From NCBI GenBank assembly GCA_016906335.1, contig JADEYG010000003.1:62001-126000 (forward strand): 64,000 nt of DNA, read 5' to 3'. Numbering within the stretch: position 1 is the first letter of the stretch; every line of letters begins with the position of its first letter. Shown here piece after piece: positions 8,291 through 34,070 of the stretch. Source of the stretch: Novakomyces olei. Taxonomy: Eukaryota; Ascomycota; Novakomycetes; Novakomycetales; Novakomycetaceae. A program made the position numbers and the translations under genes. A model generated the notes under the pieces. That model had not been told where the DNA came from and did not search any database. It worked only from the letters and a program-made list of their open reading frames with translations.

Positions 8291-8821
8291 ATGGGTGAAG
8301 GCATCTTTAGCCAGCTTGCTCCGATGGAAACTCGTTTGAGCGCTCAGATTTCTGCAGTGTGCGACGACGTTACTACACTGAGAACACAATTCACGGCATT
8401 TGGCGCAGACCTCAACGGATGTATGTTTGATTTATTATAAATTTAAGTTTTCTAATAAAATCAGTGACTACAACAACAAAGCAAGAGTCGCGAATAGTCA
8501 CATTCGCAATATAACGAGCAGAATTACTCCGTTGAAAGCGCAGTTCACTAACACTGCCATTGTCGATTTCCCGATAACAGTTCATGAACTGAATTCTTTG
8601 AGCAGTAGGTGTTTAGAGCATGGGTGTTTTTTTTATTAATATTTTTGGGGAAGGTTTGCTTTTGGTTTTCTTTCAGTTTAGTCGCTACATTGAAATTTAT
8701 TGATTTTGGCGTATTTGAATGTAAAAAATTCGGAGCATATCATTTCCTGTGGCCACAGAGTCGAAAAATACGTAAAGCTATACCTTCATTGTTTGCAAAA
8801 CTTTCGCATATTTGCCGATAA
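8291..8821 (+). CDS. Small coiled-coil protein with Mug135-like C-terminal region, three exons
   Basis: Model: exons 8291-8420, 8482-8604 and 8682-8821, 130 aa, frame kept through both introns (GTATGT...AAAG and GTAGGT...TTAG). The N-terminal part is helical (MGEGIFSQLAPMETRLSAQ). Exon 2 reads RVANSHIRNITSRITPL followed by IVDFPITVHELNSLS. Exon 3 ends in a basic helix (SRKIRKAIPSLFAKL). Exon 2 and both intron positions line up with the gene at 18737-19427, so the two are members of one family. The pattern of an N-S pair, PL, DFP, then a short C-terminal helix recalls the Mug135-like C-terminal domain of fungal proteins. That is from memory and not verified. No function is known to me. A CAG at 8462-8464 would break the frame, so AAAG at 8478-8481 was chosen as acceptor. 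Confidence 0.6.
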
Positions 8822-9279: not shown

Positions 9280-12200
9280 CTATTTATTCCTCCTACCCGT
9301 CCTCAATCGGCGCCACAAGTGAGAAGGGGATATGCGACGGAGCAGATCATGTTCACGAATCCATGTGAAAATGTACGCCAATGAATAATTAAAAACAACG
9401 TATGCCAGGAGAATACCAAAATTCCGCCATTTCGTCCCTGGATCGATCGGAATCTGACCAAGGTACTCGCCGCCAATCCGGTAAGCGCAATAGTCGCAAG
9501 AGTCCTGGCCAAACGGGTTCACCAAATATCCAGAGGCCCCAGCGATCCAATCGCCAGCAAAACTAGTGCAAGTCTCGCCAGGAGGAATCAAGAACCTTTG
9601 TGTTTCCATTGCGGTACATTCGACTCGACGATTCTTCAAGAGGGTCCCGATAACACCCGAGGTATAATAATACATGGGTGTCAGGTAGGGCATCCAGTAC
9701 CGCCAAAAGACAGGAATCAGCCGGATCCGCTGAGTGACGCCAGTGAAGAGGTCATACGTAACCAAAATCAAGGGCACAACTTTGCTCATGACGGCAAAAG
9801 ACGGAGCAATCATAGAAAACGCTAGGGCCAGGCTATTGATGTAGATCAAAAGTGTAAGCAGCATCAAAAAGCTATACCCGCTCACGCTGGCGGCCACAGG
9901 CATGCCCATGGGAAAGTACCAGAGGACCCAGTAAAGTGTAGCTGTCAGGATACCATACGGCAATTCGACCACAACTATTCCAGTAACAAAAGCTGACCAA
10001 TGGTAAACTTTAGCCGGCCGCTCTCGCGCCACATAGACCTGTCGTAAGTCTGTGTACTTTGCGATAAGCGTAAAGAGCAATGCAGCAGGAATAGTAACAA
10101 TCATAAAGGCAGCAAAAAGGATCTTTTCCACACTCAAAATAGACGCGTCCAACCGGAAGAACGTAAAGCTGACAATAATTGCCTCAAAGCAAGCAGTAAA
10201 CACTTTTGAAAACGTATACTCTGCATCCCGCCAGTAATTACGAAAGAGCCGTAGGGTTACATAGTACATTTGAGTCCACAATGAGGCAGCAAACTCGCGT
10301 GAGTCGTCTCCTCCTTTTCCAGATTTCGTTGTGACTGTGTACTTTGCTTCCTCTAATGAGCAAAGCTGCTGCTCTACCGCACTCGACTCGGCCGATACTT
10401 GCCACGCATCTGCCGCTGAATGAGCAGATTTGCCACCGTGAGCTGTATCAATCAGCATATCTGCTTCATTGCCAGTTGAAGGTCGGGCCAGGTACTGCGG
10501 CACTTGGCCGCGGTCACCGAAATAAACAGTCCGGCCGCCACTGAGAGCCAGGACCCGGTCGAACAGGGAGAAGAGCGTAGCACTTGGCTGGTGAATGGTA
10601 CAGATAATGGCCAGTTGCCGGCTGTCTGCCAGTTTCCTCAGGAATCGGACTATATTATACGCAGACTGGGCATCCAGCCCGGACGTTGGCTCATCCAGAA
10701 ATAGTAGACAGTCCGGCCGGGAGCATAATTCGACACCAATAGTGACTCGTTTCTTCTCCTCCACCTGCAAAGTTTCAATTTCCGCGTCTTTGATATCTCG
10801 CAGCTCGAGTAAATCAAGCAGTGACTCAACTGTCTCCAATTTTTCCCGTTGGGAAACGTGGGCTGGCTGGCGCAGCATGGCAGAAAACACAAAGGCCTCT
10901 TCCACACTGGCCTTGCCGTCATGAATATCCATTTGCTCACAGTAAGCAGCTGTACGAGTGAAGGCTGGAGTCAGTGGACAGCCGTCAAACAGAATTGAAC
11001 CCTCTATTCTGCCCAGGCCAGAATTTCGTTGCGCCAGAGTGTTTAGGAGCGTTGTTTTCCCAGCACCAGAAGATCCAATTAGCGCTATCATCTCCCCGGG
11101 TTTAGCCCACCCATTTACACCGGAAAGAAGACGCCTAAAATCGCCATTAGGCAGGGCCACAGTCAGTGAGAGATTGTGCCACGTAAAGACATGTTGAGGC
11201 TGATCCAGATTGTCAATAGCTTTATTTTCAATAGCTTTATTTTCAATAGCTTTATTGTCAATAGCTTTATTTTCAATAGCTTTATTTTCAATAGCTTTAG
11301 AGGCAGGTCCCCGATTCTGGCGGCTTGATACACTCTCTTTGCCAGAGTGCGTCATGGCTTTTGCACTGCCATTGACATTATCGGTTTTGTTTCCTTCTTC
11401 CCTGCTTGAGCTGCCATTCGTCGTTTTAGTATTTGGACTAGTAGTTGCCTTCTCCGTATCTGAAGTAGAATTCACCTTTAGATTGTCCTTTGTGTCTCCT
11501 CGGGTTTCAATATCCCGAGTCTTCTGCCTCCGTACGAGCTCCAACGGCCTCGGACCTGAGTGTACAAACCTGACCCGCTCAAGAGCCACGATTTCAATCA
11601 CAATATAAGCCACCGTCCAGGCAATCACAATGCCGAAATTCCGCCAAATATGATGGGCCGAGTACCCATACCGCAATCCCACATACTCTGAGCCCCTTAC
11701 AAAGGCCTCGCCCGGCCGAGCTCCAGTGGCAGTGCAAGTCTGATGCTGCAATGTGTAGCGCGGGCCCTGTGGGACCATTGCGTCTGGCGTACAGGCAAAG
11801 AGCTGTCCCGAGTACTCGTTCGCCATTACTGCCTCATAAGCAAATCCGATAGGATCCAGGTACTGGAACCATCCGAACCAGGGCACTCTGCTCAACATTT
11901 GGTTTTTAGGGATAATATACCCCATAAACACGAGGCACGCGTCGAGGTAAGCTACACAGTACCTAATAGCCACAGGGAAACTTGGGCTCAAAGCCGCAGC
12001 ACATCGGTAGAGGCAGGTTAAGCATAGTGTAAGTACGTAAACAAACACGTAATAAGTAAAGAAATGACCTGCTGTGCGCTGGAAATTGCACATAAAATAA
12101 GCAATAATGGAAAACAAAAAAGTCTGAATAAAAAGTAACGGGATATCCACAAGGACCCGGCCGAGGGCGACTGCTGCTGGCCGGTAAAAGGCATAGGCCC

Positions 12201-17153: not shown

Positions 17154-17370
17154 TGCCAAAAGGACCTGTCTGCCTATCGCGAACTGGCGCGTTAATTTAT
17201 CGATATACTTAAATTCACTATACATGAAGTTTCCTTTGATCACAGTCGCGTACGACGTATATATTGCTAATACTATAGAGAACTTATTCTGTAAAATGCT
17301 TCTTGTTTTGTGAAAAGATATATTGAAGATTACTTCTACCAGCATTTATAACAGTTAGTGTTAGCGTAAG

Positions 17371-17390
17371 ATAACTAACCCTAAGCCTAA
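17371..17390. promoter_or_regulatory. Single telomere-like AACCCTAA site in left arm
   Basis: TAACTAACCCTAAGCCTAAC. The matching site in the right arm (32792-32811) lies about 230 bp upstream of PLP1, so the left one appears to be a copied promoter element without its gene. Confidence 0.45.
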
Positions 17391-17438
17391 CTTATTCTGG
17401 CTTACTATTGCTGAAGACTAGATAGATTGGCTCCAAGA

Positions 17439-17648
17439 TCAGTCACGAGTAACTGTAATAGCGTCAAGTGCCTTGATAAGGATTAAGTTGGCAATAACTC
17501 GCTCACTCATGCCGGACACTGTGCGATCAAGGCGCTCAATAAGGCTGTTAACATTGTCCTCTATATCGTCAAAGCGCTTATTCATAGCTTTACGGATCAG
17601 CATCAGCTCTTGTAGAATTTCGGCACCTATGTCGATTGGACGCTTCAT
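17439..17648 (-). CDS. Small coiled-coil protein C (left arm)
   Basis: 69 aa from the ATG at 17648. Begins MKRPIDIGAEILQELMLIRKAM and continues with RFDDIEDNVNSLIERLDRTVSG, a short coiled coil. It is a paralogue of the next gene (17911-18198): both have the same start and the same non-coding leader just before ATG (GCTTTCGAGTCTCCTCGCTGG), which shows tandem duplication. It lacks the Mug135-like C-terminal region of the full-length gene at 18737-19427. The right-arm copy at 32534-32740 is also open. Role unknown; it might be a truncated partner able to pair with the longer coiled coil. Confidence 0.55.
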   Translation of the reverse strand: MKRPIDIGAEILQELMLIRKAMNKRFDDIEDNVNSLIERLDRTVSGMSERVIANLILIKALDAITVTRD

Positions 17649-17910
17649 GGAGCCAGCGAGGAGACTCGAAAGCTATCTGAAATGCAGTATAATAGATATA
17701 AATTGAATTGATAACACGATAATGCTATCGCCTACGTGTATAGTAGGATTATGAGATAGATCCTTAAACTCATGCTGTTTCGAAAACCGCTATTTCGCGT
17801 GTCCATAATTGCGGCCTTGAAAAACCGAATAGGCTTGCTAAAAATAATATATTGCGATCAGTCAGTTCATAATACGAGTAACTTTGATAGTCTTCAAGGA
17901 AAGCAAAACT

Positions 17911-18198
17911 CTATACCTCAATGCGGATATCGTTGGCAACAGCTCGCTCTCTCATGCCAGCCACTGTGCGATCAAGGCGCTCAATTAGTCTGTTAAAATT
18001 GTCCTCCATGTCGTCAAAGCGCTTATCCATATCGTCACAGCGCTTATTCATATCGTCAAAGCGCTTATCGATAGCGTCACAGTGCTTATTCATATCGTCA
18101 AAGTGCTTATCCATACTGTCAAATCCCTTATCCATAGCCTTACCGATCAACTTCAGCTCTCGTAGAATTTCCGCACCTATGTCGATTGAGGGCTTCAT
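17911..18198 (-). CDS. Small coiled-coil protein B with heptad repeats (left arm)
   Basis: 95 aa from the ATG at 18198. After MKPSIDIGAEILRELKLIGKAM come 7-residue units of the type DKRFDDM/NKRCDDM (about residues 26-64), then NFNRLIERLDRTVAGMRERA. The periodic pattern is a plain coiled coil. The end reads RIE then GTATAG; splicing there to 17840 would add about 15 residues but not the family C-terminal domain, so the 3' end is uncertain. The N-terminal IDIGAEILRELKLI resembles FDQGANILEQLRLL in the gene at 18737-19427, so they share ancestry. The right-arm counterpart (32072-32275) has an early stop and four fewer heptads. Confidence 0.55.
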   Translation of the reverse strand: MKPSIDIGAEILRELKLIGKAMDKGFDSMDKHFDDMNKHCDAIDKRFDDMNKRCDDMDKRFDDMEDNFNRLIERLDRTVAGMRERAVANDIRIEV

Positions 18199-18736
18199 GG
18201 CGCCAGCGAGGAGACTCGAAAGCTATTTTAAGGGCCCTTGATATAAAGCGAGGGTGACTGATTCATATCACTCTCCGTTAATTTGCTTGCTTGACAACAT
18301 GGAACTTATCTCGGGAATCTTCCCATCTCTTTCAATATTTAAATTTATTAATGAAATGATATCTTATCCACCACGCTTTATGTATTTGGGTAGATCATCG
18401 TATTATTTAATAAAAATTTACTTTTAATCTAATATTCTGCTTCCTGCTATCTGATTGAGACCCTCGTAGTATTCTGTTGTCCTACCATCGTGTTTCAAGT
18501 TTTGTCACGTTTTACAAAGAATAGAAATGACCATTTATTAAATTGCTATGCGACGGCCAGATTAAAGGGGGAAAAAACTAATTAGTTAGAAGCTATCTAA
18601 GATATTCATCAATGCCTGATACGCACTGTTTTGGAAAACAAACGAGAGAAACAATTCGAAAAAACAAATGTAAAACAGAATGAAATCAAAATAAAGCAAA
18701 ATAACAGCACCGTCCAATTGAAGCATTCCTAACTGT

Positions 18737-19427
18737 TCAATCAAATTGCATAAAATAGTCCGGAATGGCGAGCAATCCTAGTTGTTTAAGAAGCTTCTTG
18801 ATCTTATGCTGTCTGTTTCCTCTATCGTTAATTCCCAATTCCATCAGAATACGGGAAACCTCAGAGTCTAAAAATTAATGCGAGAAAGATAATCGACACT
18901 TACAATTCAGTCTTAGAACTTCCTCGTATGTAGTAGGAAAGTCTGTGATCGGCTCTCCAGTACTTTTTGACATAAGTGGCTCGATGCGAGACGATACTAA
19001 TTGTGTACGACAATTAATGACTCGCACAGTGCAATTTTGCTCGCTACACAATGTCGCTTAGTAAATATTAATATATATAAAAACTTTACCTCCTCTCGAT
19101 AGAACTTTCGATTTGAGTGAAACGCTCGTTTATTGCCGCAAAGCTCCCATCGTTGGAATCAAACCGGGCTTCCATGAAGTCAAAGCGCCTAGACAAGTCC
19201 TGAAATTGCCTATCGTGGGCCTCCAAGCGCCTAGACAAGTCCTGATATTGCCTATCGTAGGCCTCAAAGCGCCTCTCACTATTTTCGTGAAGCAGCCTCA
19301 ATTGCTCAAGGATATTTGCACCTTGGTCGAAAATCGGCAAATGTAGCAGACCAGAGACAGCCGTTGCTAGTCCATGAATTTGGCCAACAAGGCTAGTAAA
19401 TTCGGGTCGCAAACTGGAAGAATCCAT
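18737..19427 (-). CDS. Coiled-coil protein A with Mug135-like C-terminal region, three exons (left arm)
   Basis: Model: exons 19427-19090, 19043-18904 and 18867-18737, introns of 46 and 36 nt (GTAAAG...GTGTAG, GTAAGT...TTTTAG), 202 aa. The N-terminal 110 residues include YDRQYQDLSRRLEAHDRQFQDLSRRFDF, a coiled coil of seven-residue steps. Exon 2 gives CTVRVINCRTQLVSSRIEPL and PITDFPTTYEEVLRLN. Exon 3 gives SEVSRILMELGINDRG and a basic helix ending in KKLLKQLGLL. Exon plan and sequence match the gene at 8291-8821. The PL...T...DFP...L...LG pattern with a closing basic helix recalls the Mug135-like C-terminal domain (from memory). An in-frame upstream ATG at 19619 would add 64 residues without coiled-coil character. 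Biochemical role unknown. Confidence 0.65.
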
Positions 19428-20741
19428 GTTGTTTGGTTGTTTGTGGAACAATAGGGTGTGATTTAAAATTGTGTACTGGCTATCGACGTGCGCTATTTTG
19501 TTTTTTAATATTATAAAATGAGGACGCCCATAACTCGGTGTCAGGTTCGCAAATGCGGCCTTTTTTGCATATATATATTTGATCACTATAGGTGTATGGA
19601 CAAGATAGAAGGAGGGCATTTTGGGTACAATAATGTAGAAATCATGCTTTACACACAGGAACGAATTGATGGCAGAATTTGAATCTCGGGTTCTAAAATA
19701 TTTGAAGATTAATCATCCCACGCAATGACACATTGCAACTATTTACGGCGATGAGCATGCCCGGATTCTATTGGCAGGTGCTATCAAGGATTTTCAACTA
19801 AGTGATACAAGCTATTTACTATGATTTGGATATAATATATGCTCATTTTTTCGCTGTTCGAAATTGATCTACTATTCCTTTTTACCACTTGATGTAAATA
19901 TCCCCAAATTAACCAATAATAATTTTATTTATTTACTATTTAGTACTTGAATACAGCTCGTTAGGTTTGCACCTAAACATTATATCTTAATTATTAATAT
20001 AATTAATTAGTAAATTTATTATATATTTAAGATATTATATACTGTTCATTGAAAGGGCCCTAGCTCAACATCGTGTCATGATAATCTAACATTGGGCGGC
20101 CCCCGGTTTATCTCCTTGTAGCCATTTAAACCACTTACTTAAAAGGGATTCTTATTGGAAATGGTATACAAAGGGAACGAAAGATGCATTTGCTCGATCG
20201 CACGTTGTCTATGAAAGGGACCCATTATCCCATAGCTTTACGTAATTTAATATTGATTTTAGTGCTTTGAAACTATTGTTGATTCGAGACGCCGTTATCC
20301 TATAGTTTCGCCTATATTGCAATAGCGCTGCTATCTTGTTTATTTCGATAAGGACTGTGTTGAATTATTTGAAGTTATGTTGAAGTTCGAACGGTTGATA
20401 TTAACTATCTGACTGTAGAAAAGAATGTTAAAGGTCCCCCAAGGTTCAGAGGCGCTGTCAGGGATATATATATATATTATTCAATAATAGATCTGGTAAA
20501 GACAGAATGTAGAAATTAGAGGAGATTTCAGTAAGTAAAGTAGAGACAGAATTATTCATGTAAGACAAGTGATTATTTCAAATAATAGAGTTAAATATAA
20601 GTTATATACTAGCTCATCGATTGGATTTTTTAAGGCTTGGTAGTTGAGAAATTATTCAAAGCAATACTTTTCTATGGCAGCGCTCTATGGAAAATGCAAA
20701 ACGCGAAAAATAAAAACTTAAATGATCAAAAACGATCTGGT

Positions 20742-30273: not shown

Positions 30274-30811
30274 TATCGTGTTTGATCCTTTAAAAGATAT
30301 TTAGCGCTGTTTGGTTGTCTTTAACTCACTTTACGCCCAAAGACGCGTTAGGTACAGAAATGATCAGTAAGGCCGTTTAGACCGGTAAATAATCAAGCGC
30401 GAGACTAAATCGAGAGCTGGATCAAATTATATGCCAGATACAAGTCAGTTTTGTTCTGACTTATGAACCTCAAACCAGCCGGATTGAAGCGATTGATACG
30501 AGTTATCTGGTGTTTTGCAACTGTTTTCGTGTTTTGCTCGGTATTATATGTATTTTTTGTCTATTATCTTACATTACATGCGAAAGTTCAATGGGACAAA
30601 TTCTTTATTTTGTGCGCTTAAATCTACGGCATATTGTGCTAACCTAGCATAGACGTTGGGTCGCTGCCAATATCATATATTATAGATCAAACAAATATAT
30701 GTTGCCTAAAGTTTATAGTATAAATTTTATATAAAATAGTAATATTTAATATTAATATATAATATGTATGTTAGGACCCAAACCAATATTTGAATTAAAA
30801 CCTAACTATCC
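30274..30811. other. VRG4 upstream region
   Basis: AT-rich, no recognised motif. Ends at the inner border of the right repeat arm. Confidence 0.5.
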
Positions 30812-31711
30812 AATCCTTATCAAAATAAACAAGGTAGCAGCGCTATTGCAATATAGGCGAAACTATAGGATAACGGCGTCTTGAATCAACCATAGTTTCA
30901 AAGCACTATAATCAATATTAAATTACGTAGAGCTATGGGGTAATGGGTCCCTTTAATAGACCACGGGCGATCGAGCAAATGCATCTTTCGTTCCCTTTGT
31001 ATACCATTTCCAATAAGAATCACTTAAGTGGTTTAAGTGGCTACAAGGAGATAAACCAGGGGTAGCCCAATGTTAGATTATCATGACACGATGTTGAGCT
31101 AGAGCCCTTTCAATGAACAGTAATATCTTAAATATATAATAAATTTACTAATTAATTATATTAATAATTAAGATATAATGTTTAGGTGCAAACCTAACAA
31201 GCTATATTCATGTACTAAATAGTAAATAAATAAAATTAGGTGGTAAAAAGGAATAATAGATCAATTTCGAACAGCGAAAAAATGAACATATATTATATCC
31301 AAATCATAGTAAATAGCTTGTATCACTTAGTTGAAAATCCTTGATAGCCACCTGCCAATAGAATCCGGGCACGCTCATCGCCGTAAATAGTTGCAATGTG
31401 TCATTGCGTGGGATGATTAATCTTCAAATATTTTAGAACCGAGATTCAAATTCTGCCATCAATTCGTTCCTGTGAGTAAAGCATGATTTTTACATTATTG
31501 TACCCAAAATGCCCTCCTTCTATCTTGTCCATACACCTATAGTGATCAAATATATATATATATGCAAAAAAGGCCGCATTTGCGAACCTGACACCGAGTT
31601 ATGGGCAGAGAATGGCCTCATTTTATAATATTAAAAAACAAAATAGCGCACGTCGATAGCCAGTACACAATTTTAAATCACACCCTATTGTTCCACAAAC
31701 AACCAAACAAC

Positions 31712-31905
31712 ATGGCTTCTTCCAGTTTGCGACCCGAATTTACTAGCCTTGTTCGCCAAATTCATGAAATAGCAACGGGTGTTTCTGGTCTGCTACATTT
31801 GCCGATTTTCGACCAAGGTGCAAGGTGCAAACATCCTTGAGCAATTGAGGCTGCTTCACGAAAATAGTGAGAGGCACTTTGAGGCCTACGATAGGCAGTT
31901 TCATA
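31712..31905 (+). pseudogene. Broken copy of coiled-coil gene A (right arm)
   Basis: Starts like gene A (MASSSLRPEFTSLV...HLPIFDQGA) but a 7-bp repeat of GTGCAAG shifts the frame, and the rest, including both later exons, is lost in the 0.9-kb deletion. Non-functional as a full-length family member. Confidence 0.8.
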
Positions 31906-32071
31906 AGATATCATTTCATTAATAAATTTAAATATTGAAAAAGATGGGAAGATTCCCCAAATAAGTTCCACGTTGTCAAGCAAGCAAATTAACGGAGAGT
32001 GATATGAATCAGTCACCCTCGCTTTATATCAAGGGCACTTAAGATAGCTTTCGAGTCTCCTCGCTGGCGCC

Positions 32072-32275
32072 ATGAAGCCCTCAATCGACATAGGTGCGTA
32101 AATTCTACGAGAGCTGAAGTTGATCGGTAAGGCTATGGATGAGGGATTTGACAGTATGGATAAGCACTTTGACGACATGGAGGACAATTTTAACAGACTA
32201 ATTGAACGCCTTGATCGCACAGTGGCTGGCATGAGAGAGCGAGCTGTTGCCAACGATATCCGCATTGAGGTATAG
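32072..32275 (+). pseudogene. Broken copy of coiled-coil gene B (right arm)
   Basis: Same start as the left copy but codon 10 is TAA (left: GAA at that place). The rest stays open to the same end. It has four fewer heptad units than the left copy. It could restart at a later ATG, giving a short helix only. Confidence 0.75.
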
Positions 32276-32533
32276 AGTTTTACTTTCCTTGAAGACTATC
32301 AAATTTACTCGTATTATGAACTGATCGCAATATATTATTTTTAGCAAGCCTATTCGGTTTTTCAAGGCCGCAATTATGGACACGCGAAATAGCGGTTTTC
32401 GAAACAGCACGAGTTTAAGGATCTATGTCATAATCCTACTATACACGTAGGCGATAGCATTATCGTATTATCAATTTAATTTATATTTATTATACTGCAT
32501 TTCAGACAGCTTTCGAGTCTCCTCGCTGGCTCC

Positions 32534-32740
32534 ATGAAGCCTCCAATCGACATAGGTGCCGAAATTCTACAAGAGCTGATGCTGATCCGTAAAGCTATGG
32601 ATGAGCGCTTTGACGATATAGAAGACAATGTTAACAGCCTTACTGAACGCCTTGATCGCACAGTGTCCGGCATGAGTGAGCGAGTTATTGCCAACTTAAT
32701 CCTTATCAAGGCACTTGAGGCTATTAGAAGTTACTCGTGA
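32534..32740 (+). CDS. Small coiled-coil protein C (right arm)
   Basis: 68 aa, open. Differs from the left copy at a handful of residues (KPP for KRP, MDERF for MNKRF, SLTERL for SLIERL) and at the C-terminus. Both copies being open while A and B are damaged in this arm could mean C alone is kept, or that it is simply short. Function unknown. Confidence 0.5.
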   Translation: MKPPIDIGAEILQELMLIRKAMDERFDDIEDNVNSLTERLDRTVSGMSERVIANLILIKALEAIRSYS

Positions 32741-32791
32741 CTGATCTTGGAGCCAATCTATATAGTCTTCAGCCATAGTAAGCCAGAGTAA

Positions 32792-32811
32792 GTTAGGCTT
32801 AGGGTTAGTTA
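32792..32811. promoter_or_regulatory. Telomere-like TTAGGGTTAG site upstream of PLP1
   Basis: GTTAGGCTTAGGGTTAGTTA, about 225 bp upstream of the PLP1 start, inside the repeat arm. It is a weaker version of the doublet (first core TTAGGC). Confidence 0.45.
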
Positions 32812-33035
32812 TCTTACGCATACACTAACTGTTATAAATGCTAGCAGAAATAATCTTTAATATATCTTTTCACAAAACGAGGAGCATTTTACAGAATAAG
32901 TTCTATAGTATTAGCAATATATACGTCGTACGCGACTGTGATCAAGAAACTTCATGTATAATATAATATAGTGAATTTAAGTATATCGATAAATTAACGC
33001 GCCAGTTCGCGATAGGCAGACAAGTCCTTTTGGCA

Positions 33036-34070
33036 ATGGCGGCGAGGGTCGATGAGCTAGCAAACGTATATGCCCGCGACGTGCGGCAAACAAAAGAGTC
33101 CGTGGAACAAGACGATTTGGCAGACATTATTGACGCGGAGGAGGACGACGGTTTTAGTCTCGGAGCTTATCGCGAGGCACGTCGTGAACAGCTCGCGAAG
33201 GAGTAAGTCTAGACTTTTTTGTGGACTATTTCTTATCGTTCAACAGGCTTCAAAAGGCGCAGTTGCTTCACAAGGAAGGCCATGGCGCTATTCATAATTG
33301 TTCTTCGGAGAAGGAGTTTCTTGATCTATCTGTGTATGTGACCCCTAAGAACGAATAATATGGACAAGACACGATCCCGACGATAACGACGACAACTAAC
33401 GTGTAAAGAAAGACCAAGGTTATGATTGGTAGTGTATATCACAAGGATTTCCGGCGCTGTGAAATTTTGCGGCGGCACCTGGAGGTATCATTGGGCTCTT
33501 TGTATTAGTTTACGGCATTTCTCATCAGTTTCTATGCTTTTGTTAAATACCTTTTTTTATTATTTTTTATTTTATTATTTTAATTTTTTTTTGCCAGTCT
33601 ATCTCCAACGCTCGTTTCTCACTACATCGCTAACCTAACACTACAATCTAGACTCTCGCTGAAAAGCATTGGCGGACAAAATTTGTGAGTTTAAATGCTC
33701 AAGAAGCGCCCTTTCTGTGCACTAAACTGGGGATCCGCATACTCCCTTGCGTGCTACTTTTTCGAGACGGTCATCTCGTGGACCGGTATTACTTTGCCAT
33801 AGCTGTATGCTATAGACTAAATATCTAGTATTGTCGGATTTGATGATTTGGGGAATCGGGATGACTTTCCGACTCTAGCCTTGGAGGAGCGCATTTCGCG
33901 CAGTGGTACGGAAAGAGAGACTGCTTGTCGCTGATAGCTTAGGTGTATTTTCCGCGTCAGGCGAGACGCCTAATGTGGCACGTAAGAGCGATTGGATGAC
34001 GAGGTCGTTGAACAAGACTAGTTTGTCGAAGCCTCGAGACGATAGTGACGATGACTTGGATATTGATTGA
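33036..34070 (+). CDS. PLP1: Phosducin-like protein, six exons
   Basis: Model: exons 33036-33202, 33247-33333, 33409-33484, 33652-33785, 33829-33905 and 33943-34070, 222 aa. N-terminal helix region (GFSLGAYREARREQLAKE, LHKEGHGAIHN), then the thioredoxin-like fold: SEKEFLD, VYHKDFRRCEILRRHLE, TKFVSLNAQEAPFLCTKLGIRILPCVLLFRDG, RIVGFDDLG. The acidic end DDSDDDLDID is typical. It matches the PhLP3/Plp1 group, co-factors of the CCT chaperonin in tubulin and actin folding. The CxxC of true thioredoxin is absent, as in the family. All introns have GT-AG ends. Two use AAAG or CTTAG acceptors just after a branch site. The start codon abuts the end of the inverted repeat, so its promoter is repeat DNA. 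Confidence 0.88.

What the first reader, a model, noticed from the sequence alone, without database searches (positions are those of the whole stretch)
18737..19427. Small coiled-coil family with a conserved three-exon plan
The gene at 18737-19427 and the one at 8291-8821 share exon limits, an NxxVRVxNxxxxxxxSRIxPL block, a DFPxT block and a closing basic helix. Only the coiled-coil length differs. The C-terminal pattern resembles the Mug135-like domain (named after a meiotically up-regulated fission-yeast gene). Truncated paralogues B and C carry only the N-terminal coiled coil. A full protein plus short forms that could pair with it is a layout seen in regulatory and in selfish systems. The function is open.
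Basis: partly seen in the sequence, partly recalled or inferred. Interest (0 to 1): 0.75.

Follow-up and report, generated by a model that had tools for sequence, protein, structure and literature searches.

The report
Possible relative of spore-killer genes
A small three-exon fungal gene in this window looks like a distant cousin of the fission-yeast Tdk spore-killer genes, and it sits in a block that was copied back-to-front nearby, where the copy is already broken; whether it kills or is just a relic is not shown.

Summary
Gene A (minus strand, 19427-18737, 202 aa) and gene D (8291-8821) share a middle exon of exactly 140 nt with the same intron phases. The encoded peptides align without gaps over 46 residues (score 75; 0 of 20000 shuffles reach it). 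Exons 1 and 3 of A and D are not clearly alike.

Plain Pfam scans do not recognise A or D. Graft and repeat tests place A exons 2 and 3 and D exon 2, weakly but in register, on Mug135_C (PF08593) or DUF3294 (PF07957). PF08593 is the conserved domain of the Tdk killer meiotic drivers (PMC12930445).

There A has lost its C-terminal exons and is frameshifted, B has an early stop and four fewer heptads, and C is open. The coil-only forms differ between copies about as much as non-coding DNA, so they look like decaying duplicates.

Best reading: a very divergent member, or relic, of the Tdk/Mug135_C superfamily (membership about 0.75). Present-day drive is unproven and less likely. No genome, RNA or cross data were available.

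The parts
19090..19427 (-). Gene A exon 1: 30-residue N-terminal helix, then PxFDQGANILEQLxLL and a heptad coiled coil with a 42-nt repeat
   Evidence: AlphaFold2 from the single sequence: helix 3-28 and 31-111, mean pLDDT 82; 3.5-residue hydrophobic period, 0 of 2000 shuffles reach it
19044..19089 (-). Gene A intron 1 (46 nt, GTAAAG...TACTAAG...TGTAG)
18904..19043 (-). Gene A exon 2 (140 nt): N-x-x-V-R-V-x-N ... SRIxPL ... DFPxT block, first half of the Mug135_C-like domain
18868..18903 (-). Gene A intron 2 (36 nt, GTAAGT...TTTTTAG)
   Evidence: a 36-nt intron with TACTAAT is also found in the GDP-mannose transporter gene of this window
18737..18867 (-). Gene A exon 3: basic helical C-terminus, second half of the Mug135_C-like domain, with the stop codon
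17911..18198 (-). ORF B: coil-only paralogue, 95 codons and a stop, 21-nt (heptad) repeat
17439..17648 (-). ORF C: coil-only paralogue, 69 codons and a stop, tandem to B
17154..20356 (-). Block copy 1 holding A, B and C
30811..33035 (+). Block copy 2, inverted; lacks about 0.88 kb (the rest of A exon 1 and exons 2-3)
31712..31902 (+). A-prime: N-terminal part of A, frameshifted by a 7-nt insertion and truncated
32072..32275 (+). B-prime: early in-frame stop, 84 nt (four heptads) fewer than B
32534..32740 (+). C-prime: open reading frame, close copy of C
8291..8424 (+). Gene D exon 1 (about 44 codons before the first intron)
8465..8604 (+). Gene D exon 2 (140 nt), homologous to A exon 2
8682..8821 (+). 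Proposed gene D exon 3; not supported by similarity to A or to the family, may be decayed or misplaced

Best explanation
Gene A is an intact-looking, very divergent member of the fungal Mug135_C superfamily (PF08593/IPR013902, overlapping PF07957), the superfamily of the Tdk killer meiotic drivers. Its long heptad helix (exon 1) should make the protein self-associate; the C-terminal domain (exons 2-3) is the conserved working part. By analogy with Tdk1, the likely way it works or once worked is that protein left in spores is poisonous unless fresh copies of the same protein join it and detoxify it, so only carriers survive. Shown here: A-D homology in exon 2, the heptad coil, block duplication and decay. 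Predicted from splice signals and homology: the three-exon structure. Inferred: family membership (about 0.75 likely). Inferred by analogy only: a selfish killer or a relic of one (about 0.45), active drive today (about 0.1). B, C and copy 2 are most simply decaying duplicates, as expected of a family with fast turnover.
For: Exon 2 of A and D: 140 nt in both, same phases, 0 of 20000 shuffles, third codon positions randomised while first and second are kept. Grafts: A exon 3 on a family-like N half gives PF08593 16.3 bits over profile 13-81; the N half alone and the 4 shuffled controls give none. A exon 2 on a family-like C half gives PF07957 13.5 bits over profile 88-150, 0 of 5 shuffled controls; D exon 2 gives 16.7 bits over 91-150, 0 of 4. 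D exon 2 repeated five times hits PF07957 in a compatible register, sixth of 13 listed families. [quoted passage not shown] internal repeats; 49 of 93 members are pseudogenes; homologues in 32 of 130 Saccharomycotina species, and a substantial fraction of the nine in Debaryomyces hansenii lack an N-terminal domain. Here: variable heptad number, tandem and inverted duplication, broken copies.
Against: Ordinary Pfam scans of A, D and their C-terminal pieces list no PF08593 or PF07957, and A repeated five times lists neither. A has no PP motif, and the Z-shaped domain was not shown. Membership does not imply drive: six further fission-yeast tdk genes tested in the paper showed none (PMC12930445, section 6). 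No relatives were found in collections of viruses, prokaryotes and plasmids, where fungal genes are not expected. The AlphaFold2 model of the C-terminal part is too poor to use (mean pLDDT 41).
Confidence: 0.5

Rival explanations
1. A, D and the block are relics: the family has no present function in this species, A is open only because it decayed last, and all similarity reflects past function.
For: Copy 2 is broken (A-prime, B-prime); coding stretches of A, B and C do not differ significantly in divergence from the non-coding block DNA (10 of 183, 3 of 199, 8 of 207 columns against 52 of 1599); pN/pS is 1.71 for A against A-prime before the insert and 0.71 for C against C-prime, on 6 and 7 changes. 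D exon 3 is unsupported.
Against: A keeps an uninterrupted three-exon frame with good splice signals; its exon 2 shows long-term protein-level constraint against D. The copy-to-copy counts cannot judge A itself, since A-prime is already broken.
Confidence: 0.3
2. A is an ordinary host protein with a Mug135_C-type domain, for example a chromatin- or DNA-associated regulator, without any killing or drive.
For: The paper tested drive only for fission-yeast members and calls tests elsewhere challenging (PMC12930445, section 13); six further fission-yeast members tested had no drive (section 6). The family-like constructs also touch the SAP domain model weakly (11.9-17.4 bits, E 0.0035 at best), which would fit nucleic-acid contact; shuffled exon 2 controls do so too, since the signal sits in the typed C half.
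Against: Duplication and breakage on this scale, and the patchy distribution reported for the family, are unusual for a housekeeping regulator. SAP was not listed for A or D themselves.
Confidence: 0.2
3. A is not a Mug135_C protein: a lineage-specific coiled-coil family whose short motifs resemble that domain by chance.
For: No Pfam hit in plain scans and none for the five-fold A construct.
Confidence: 0.2
4. The block is a mobile element and A-B-C are passengers or element genes.
For: Two inverted copies about 10.5 kb apart.
Against: By eye the aligned ends show no terminal inverted repeat or target-site duplication (no program was run for this); no transposase family among the Pfam families listed for A, B, C and D (for B the best 25 of 36 were shown); only two copies in the window.
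Confidence: 0.06

Closest known systems
Tdk killer meiotic driver family of Schizosaccharomyces (tdk1, tdk210, tdk203; PF08593/IPR013902), PMC12930445
   Same: C-terminal domain of a similar pattern preceded by a helix of variable length with internal repeats; several copies, many broken; fungal only.
   Different: A is 202 aa with no PP motif and no shown Z-shaped domain; its domain is below Pfam detection; it has two predicted introns. Host dependence and killing are untested.
DUF3294 (PF07957)
   Same: A exon 2 and D exon 2 grafts fall in register (profile 88-150 and 91-150), as does the five-fold D exon 2 construct (75-135).
   Different: Graft scores are below the cut-off of 20.6 bits; no paper in the searched library names this family.
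S. pombe Mug135 (namesake of Mug135_C)
   Same: Named domain at the C-terminus (recalled).
   Different: No sequence of it was available here; only the Pfam model was tested.
IPR013902 proteins of Debaryomyces hansenii that lack the N-terminal domain (PMC12930445, section 13)
   Same: No Tdk-type N-terminal domain shown before the conserved domain; read there as suggestive of pseudogenisation.
   Different: A has a long regular heptad coil in front and an intact predicted frame.

Membership tests
Mug135_C (PF08593) | Pfam score at or above the gathering cut-off 23.8 bits | tested here: not met
   No hit for A, D or their C-terminal pieces at E up to 10; the model is in the library
Mug135_C (PF08593) | In-register resemblance over both halves of the 82-position domain | tested here: inconclusive
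   A exon 3 graft 16.3 bits over 13-81, 0 of 4 shuffles; exon 2 grafts not discriminating on PF08593
DUF3294 (PF07957) | Score at or above 20.6 bits | tested here: not met
   A exon 2 graft 13.5, D exon 2 graft 16.7 bits, in register, 0 of 9 shuffled exon 2 controls; D exon 2 five-fold 29.1 bits summed over copies, which is not a fair score for one domain
Tdk killer meiotic drivers | N-terminal Z-shaped domain | tested here: inconclusive
   AlphaFold2 of exon 1 gives helix 3-28, break, helix 31-111; no Tdk structure was available to compare
Tdk killer meiotic drivers | PP motif in the linker | tested here: not met
   No PP in the 202-aa model
Tdk killer meiotic drivers | Helix of variable length and internal repeats before the domain | tested here: met
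   42-nt repeat in A, 21-nt repeat in B, four heptads fewer in B-prime; heptad period 0 of 2000 shuffles
Tdk killer meiotic drivers | Several copies with frequent pseudogenisation | tested here: met
   Within the window: A and D with the domain block; A, B, C and A-prime, B-prime, C-prime with the N-terminal motif; A-prime and B-prime broken. Genome-wide count not possible
Tdk killer meiotic drivers | Kills spores or progeny that do not carry the gene | not testable with these tools
   Needs crosses

The most novel reading that the evidence does not exclude
The A-B-C block is a living drive system derived from the Tdk superfamily in which the coil-only products B and C act as separate partners (antidote or decoy) of the full protein A, and the number of heptads sets which variants recognise each other; block duplication and heptad loss in copy 2 would then be a snapshot of an incompatibility class being born and dying.
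Probability: 0.07. Interest if true: 0.85.

Novelty: new member of a known kind. Interest (0 to 1): 0.5.

Why it matters
If A belongs to the Tdk superfamily, that family contains members too divergent for the Pfam model, so its published count (478 proteins in 150 of 1,430 fungal species, PMC12930445) is a lower bound. The window then offers a compact natural example of how such genes multiply and break: tandem shortening, inverted block duplication, heptad loss, frameshift. The question raised in that paper, whether repeat variation contributes to incompatibility between drivers, could be approached with the A/B/B-prime heptad variants.

Tried and rejected
Plain Pfam scans of A, B, C, D gave only coiled-coil and chance families (for B the best 25 of 36 were shown). 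Relatives were sought with the C-terminal part of A, the A-D alignment and B in viral contigs, with A and the A-D alignment in prokaryote genomes, with A in plasmids and in PDB sequences (best E 1.2, an SMC6 chain, taken as chance): none. These collections, apart from PDB, are not meant to hold fungi, so this says little. Rfam found nothing at its gathering thresholds. An AlphaFold2 model of A exons 2-3 was too poor, so no fold search was run.

The five-fold repeat test is noisy: the four true constructs listed 22, 19, 6 and 13 families and the three controls sent (two reversed, one shuffled; a fourth, shuffled D, was prepared but not sent) listed 7, 14 and 8. Five unrelated families scored above PF07957 for D exon 2. 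Only the presence of a family named beforehand, in a compatible register, was used.

The intron survey failed as a whole: no full model was found for the sugar transporter or the GDP-mannose transporter. Only the first intron of the latter was used, because a PDB match spans it.

Rejected: B as a spliced gene with a second exon (GTATAG...TTTTTAG); nothing like exon 2 is found there. Rejected: A starting upstream at 19619; that stretch carries indels of 4 and 7 nt between the copies. Accelerated evolution of A: 10 of 183 against 6 of 460 in its own upstream stretch (p 0.004), but against all non-coding block DNA counted (52 of 1599) p is 0.13, so not claimed.

Full report
What is there. The window is fungal: neighbouring reading frames carry a fungal-specific transcription factor domain, a PDR/CDR-type ABC transporter, copper amine oxidase, cyclophilin-TPR, WLM, CorA, sugar transporter and Pumilio domains (8 of the 10 frames sent had a match at E up to 1e-4). 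No whole genome is held for it, so the species is unknown and genome-wide counts were not possible.

Gene A. Enumerating splice models gives a 202-residue protein, the longest found, from exons 19427-19090, 19043-18904 and 18867-18737 on the minus strand. Intron 1 (46 nt) contains TACTAAG and ends TGTAG; intron 2 is 36 nt, GTAAGT to TTTTTAG. So short an intron is credible here: the GDP-mannose transporter gene in the same window (PDB match E 9e-10 over residues 31-80, which spans the junction) has a 36-nt intron with TACTAAT (the rest of that gene model was not resolved).

The middle exon is 140 nt in both genes and the phases are 2 and 1 in both. The two middle-exon peptides align without a gap over 46 residues, score 75 against a shuffled mean of 19.1 and maximum of 50, with 0 of 20000 shuffles reaching it. 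Identity by codon position is 0.46, 0.57 and 0.24: the third position has drifted to randomness while the protein is held. This supports real exons and real homology. Exon 3 of D is at chance against A (923 of 5000), exon 1 is marginal (23 of 5000) and at chance against B (1162 of 5000). D may be decayed at its end or its third exon may be misplaced.

B and C. B (18198-17911) and C (17648-17439) share A's P-x-x-D-x-G-A-x-I-L-x-x-L-x-L segment and heptads (A exon 1 against B, 0 of 5000 shuffles; A segment against C, 1 of 5000). They begin 30 residues later than A. A profile of the A and D middle exons finds only A and D in the window (next best E 0.99), so B and C have no recognisable C-terminal domain. 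The repeat unit is 21 nt in B and 42 nt in A. A exon 1 residues 31-112 show a strong 3.5-residue hydrophobic period (0 of 2000 shuffles), and AlphaFold2 from the single sequence gives two helices, 3-28 and 31-111 (mean pLDDT 82, pTM 0.46).

The missed duplicate. Profiles of the N-terminal segments find a second cluster at 31592-32737. BLAST of the window on itself shows that 17154-20357 and 30811-33035 are inverted copies, 93.2-96.8% identical in four main pieces. The alignment shows that copy 2 lacks about 0.88 kb holding the rest of A exon 1 and exons 2-3; A-prime also has a 7-nt insertion that shifts its frame; B-prime has an early in-frame stop and lacks 84 nt, four heptads; C-prime is open. 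Excluding gaps, the stretches counted differ at 73 of 2188 columns: 52 of 1599 non-coding, 10 of 183 in A, 3 of 199 in B, 8 of 207 in C. None of the coding stretches differs significantly from non-coding (p 0.13, 0.27, 0.68). pN/pS is 0.71 for C against C-prime and 1.71 for A against A-prime before the insertion, on 7 and 6 changes. The older divergence of B from C gives pN/pS 0.53 (0.128/0.24), which hints at some past constraint. The short forms therefore look like decaying duplicates, not conserved partners, though the counts are small. The spacer between the inverted copies is about 10.5 kb.

Family. Plain hmmscan does not find it. Because HMMER's filters hide weak scores, two further tests were used. 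First, five head-to-tail copies of each piece: D exon 2 hits PF07957, sixth of 13 families, in a register that, counted without gaps, lies within about one position of the typed family-like sequence; A, A exon 2 and D (exons 2-3) do not, and none of three controls does. Second, grafts. The typed N half plus A exon 3 matches PF08593 over profile 13-81 with 16.3 bits; neither the N half alone nor any of 4 shuffled exon 3 versions matches it. A exon 2 plus the typed C half matches PF07957 over 88-150 with 13.5 bits, 0 of 5 shuffles; D exon 2 gives 16.7 bits over 91-150, 0 of 4 shuffles; the C half alone gives none. D exon 3 adds nothing. PF08593 gains for exon 2 grafts (28.0 and 29.0 against 23.7 for the C half alone) do not count, since two of four shuffled D exon 2 constructs reach 27.6 and 28.0. 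PF07957 gains for exon 3 do not count either (25.0 against 24.7 in one of four shuffles). That sequence was written after I had seen A. Together this makes membership likely (about 0.75) but below any curated threshold.

What the family does. The one paper in the library that names IPR013902 is PMC12930445 (abstract, sections 3, 6, 8, 13, 14 and passages read). Papers naming Mug135, DUF1773 or UPF0300 were seen only as listings. It reports that tdk1, tdk210 and tdk203 of fission yeasts are single-gene killer meiotic drivers; that PF08593 is the most conserved segment; [quoted passage not shown] that the genes hold internal repeats; that 49 of 93 family members are pseudogenes; that six further members tested showed no drive; and that 478 such proteins occur in 150 of 1,430 fungal species, including 32 of 130 Saccharomycotina, with drive outside fission yeasts not tested. 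It describes Tdk1 as one protein with toxin and antidote conformations, and speaks of detoxification by self-interaction. A word search of its main text found no 'coil', 'SAP' or 'intron'.

Mechanism, steps marked. Shown or predicted here: a gene with a self-associating type of helix followed by a conserved two-exon domain. Inferred: the domain is of Mug135_C type. By analogy only: spores inherit toxic protein, and only carriers make fresh protein that joins and neutralises it. Against an exact Tdk match, A has no PP motif and the Z-shaped domain is not shown. Against present activity, copy 2 is broken, D's end is doubtful, and six further tdk genes tested in the paper did not drive. I therefore place 'selfish killer or relic of one' at about 0.45 and 'active today' at about 0.1.

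Verdict. A real, duplicated and partly decayed gene family with good evidence for A-D homology, probable remote membership of the Tdk/Mug135_C superfamily, and an unproven function. New member of a known kind; interest 0.5.

Noticed in passing
17154-20356 and 30811-33035: Inverted repeat of 2-3 kb flanking a 10.5-kb stretch with cyclophilin-TPR, WLM, CorA and GDP-mannose transporter genes; recombination between the arms could invert that stretch.
   Followed up: partly
898, 2761, 14558, 17375-17390, 22267, 32793-32808, 52398, 55071: TTAGGNTTAG (telomere-like) occurs 10 times against 0.48 expected from shuffles, in both block copies and in some cases within a few hundred bases upstream of other reading frames; possibly Tbf1/telobox-type promoter sites (recalled) or interstitial telomere repeats.
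   Followed up: no
33036-34063: Block copy 2 ends right at the ATG of a reading frame that looks phosducin-like by eye (recalled) and seems broken further on; Pfam gave no significant match for its first 85 residues.
   Followed up: partly
11209-11299: Six copies of a 15-nt in-frame repeat (NKAIE-type) inside the PDR-type ABC transporter reading frame.
   Followed up: no
Pfam PF08593 C-terminal half (constructs, not window sequence): Family-like Mug135_C constructs also touch the SAP domain model (11.9-17.4 bits, also in shuffled exon 2 controls, so the signal sits in the typed C half), hinting that the end of the domain may be SAP-like; a word search of the Tdk paper found no SAP.
   Followed up: partly
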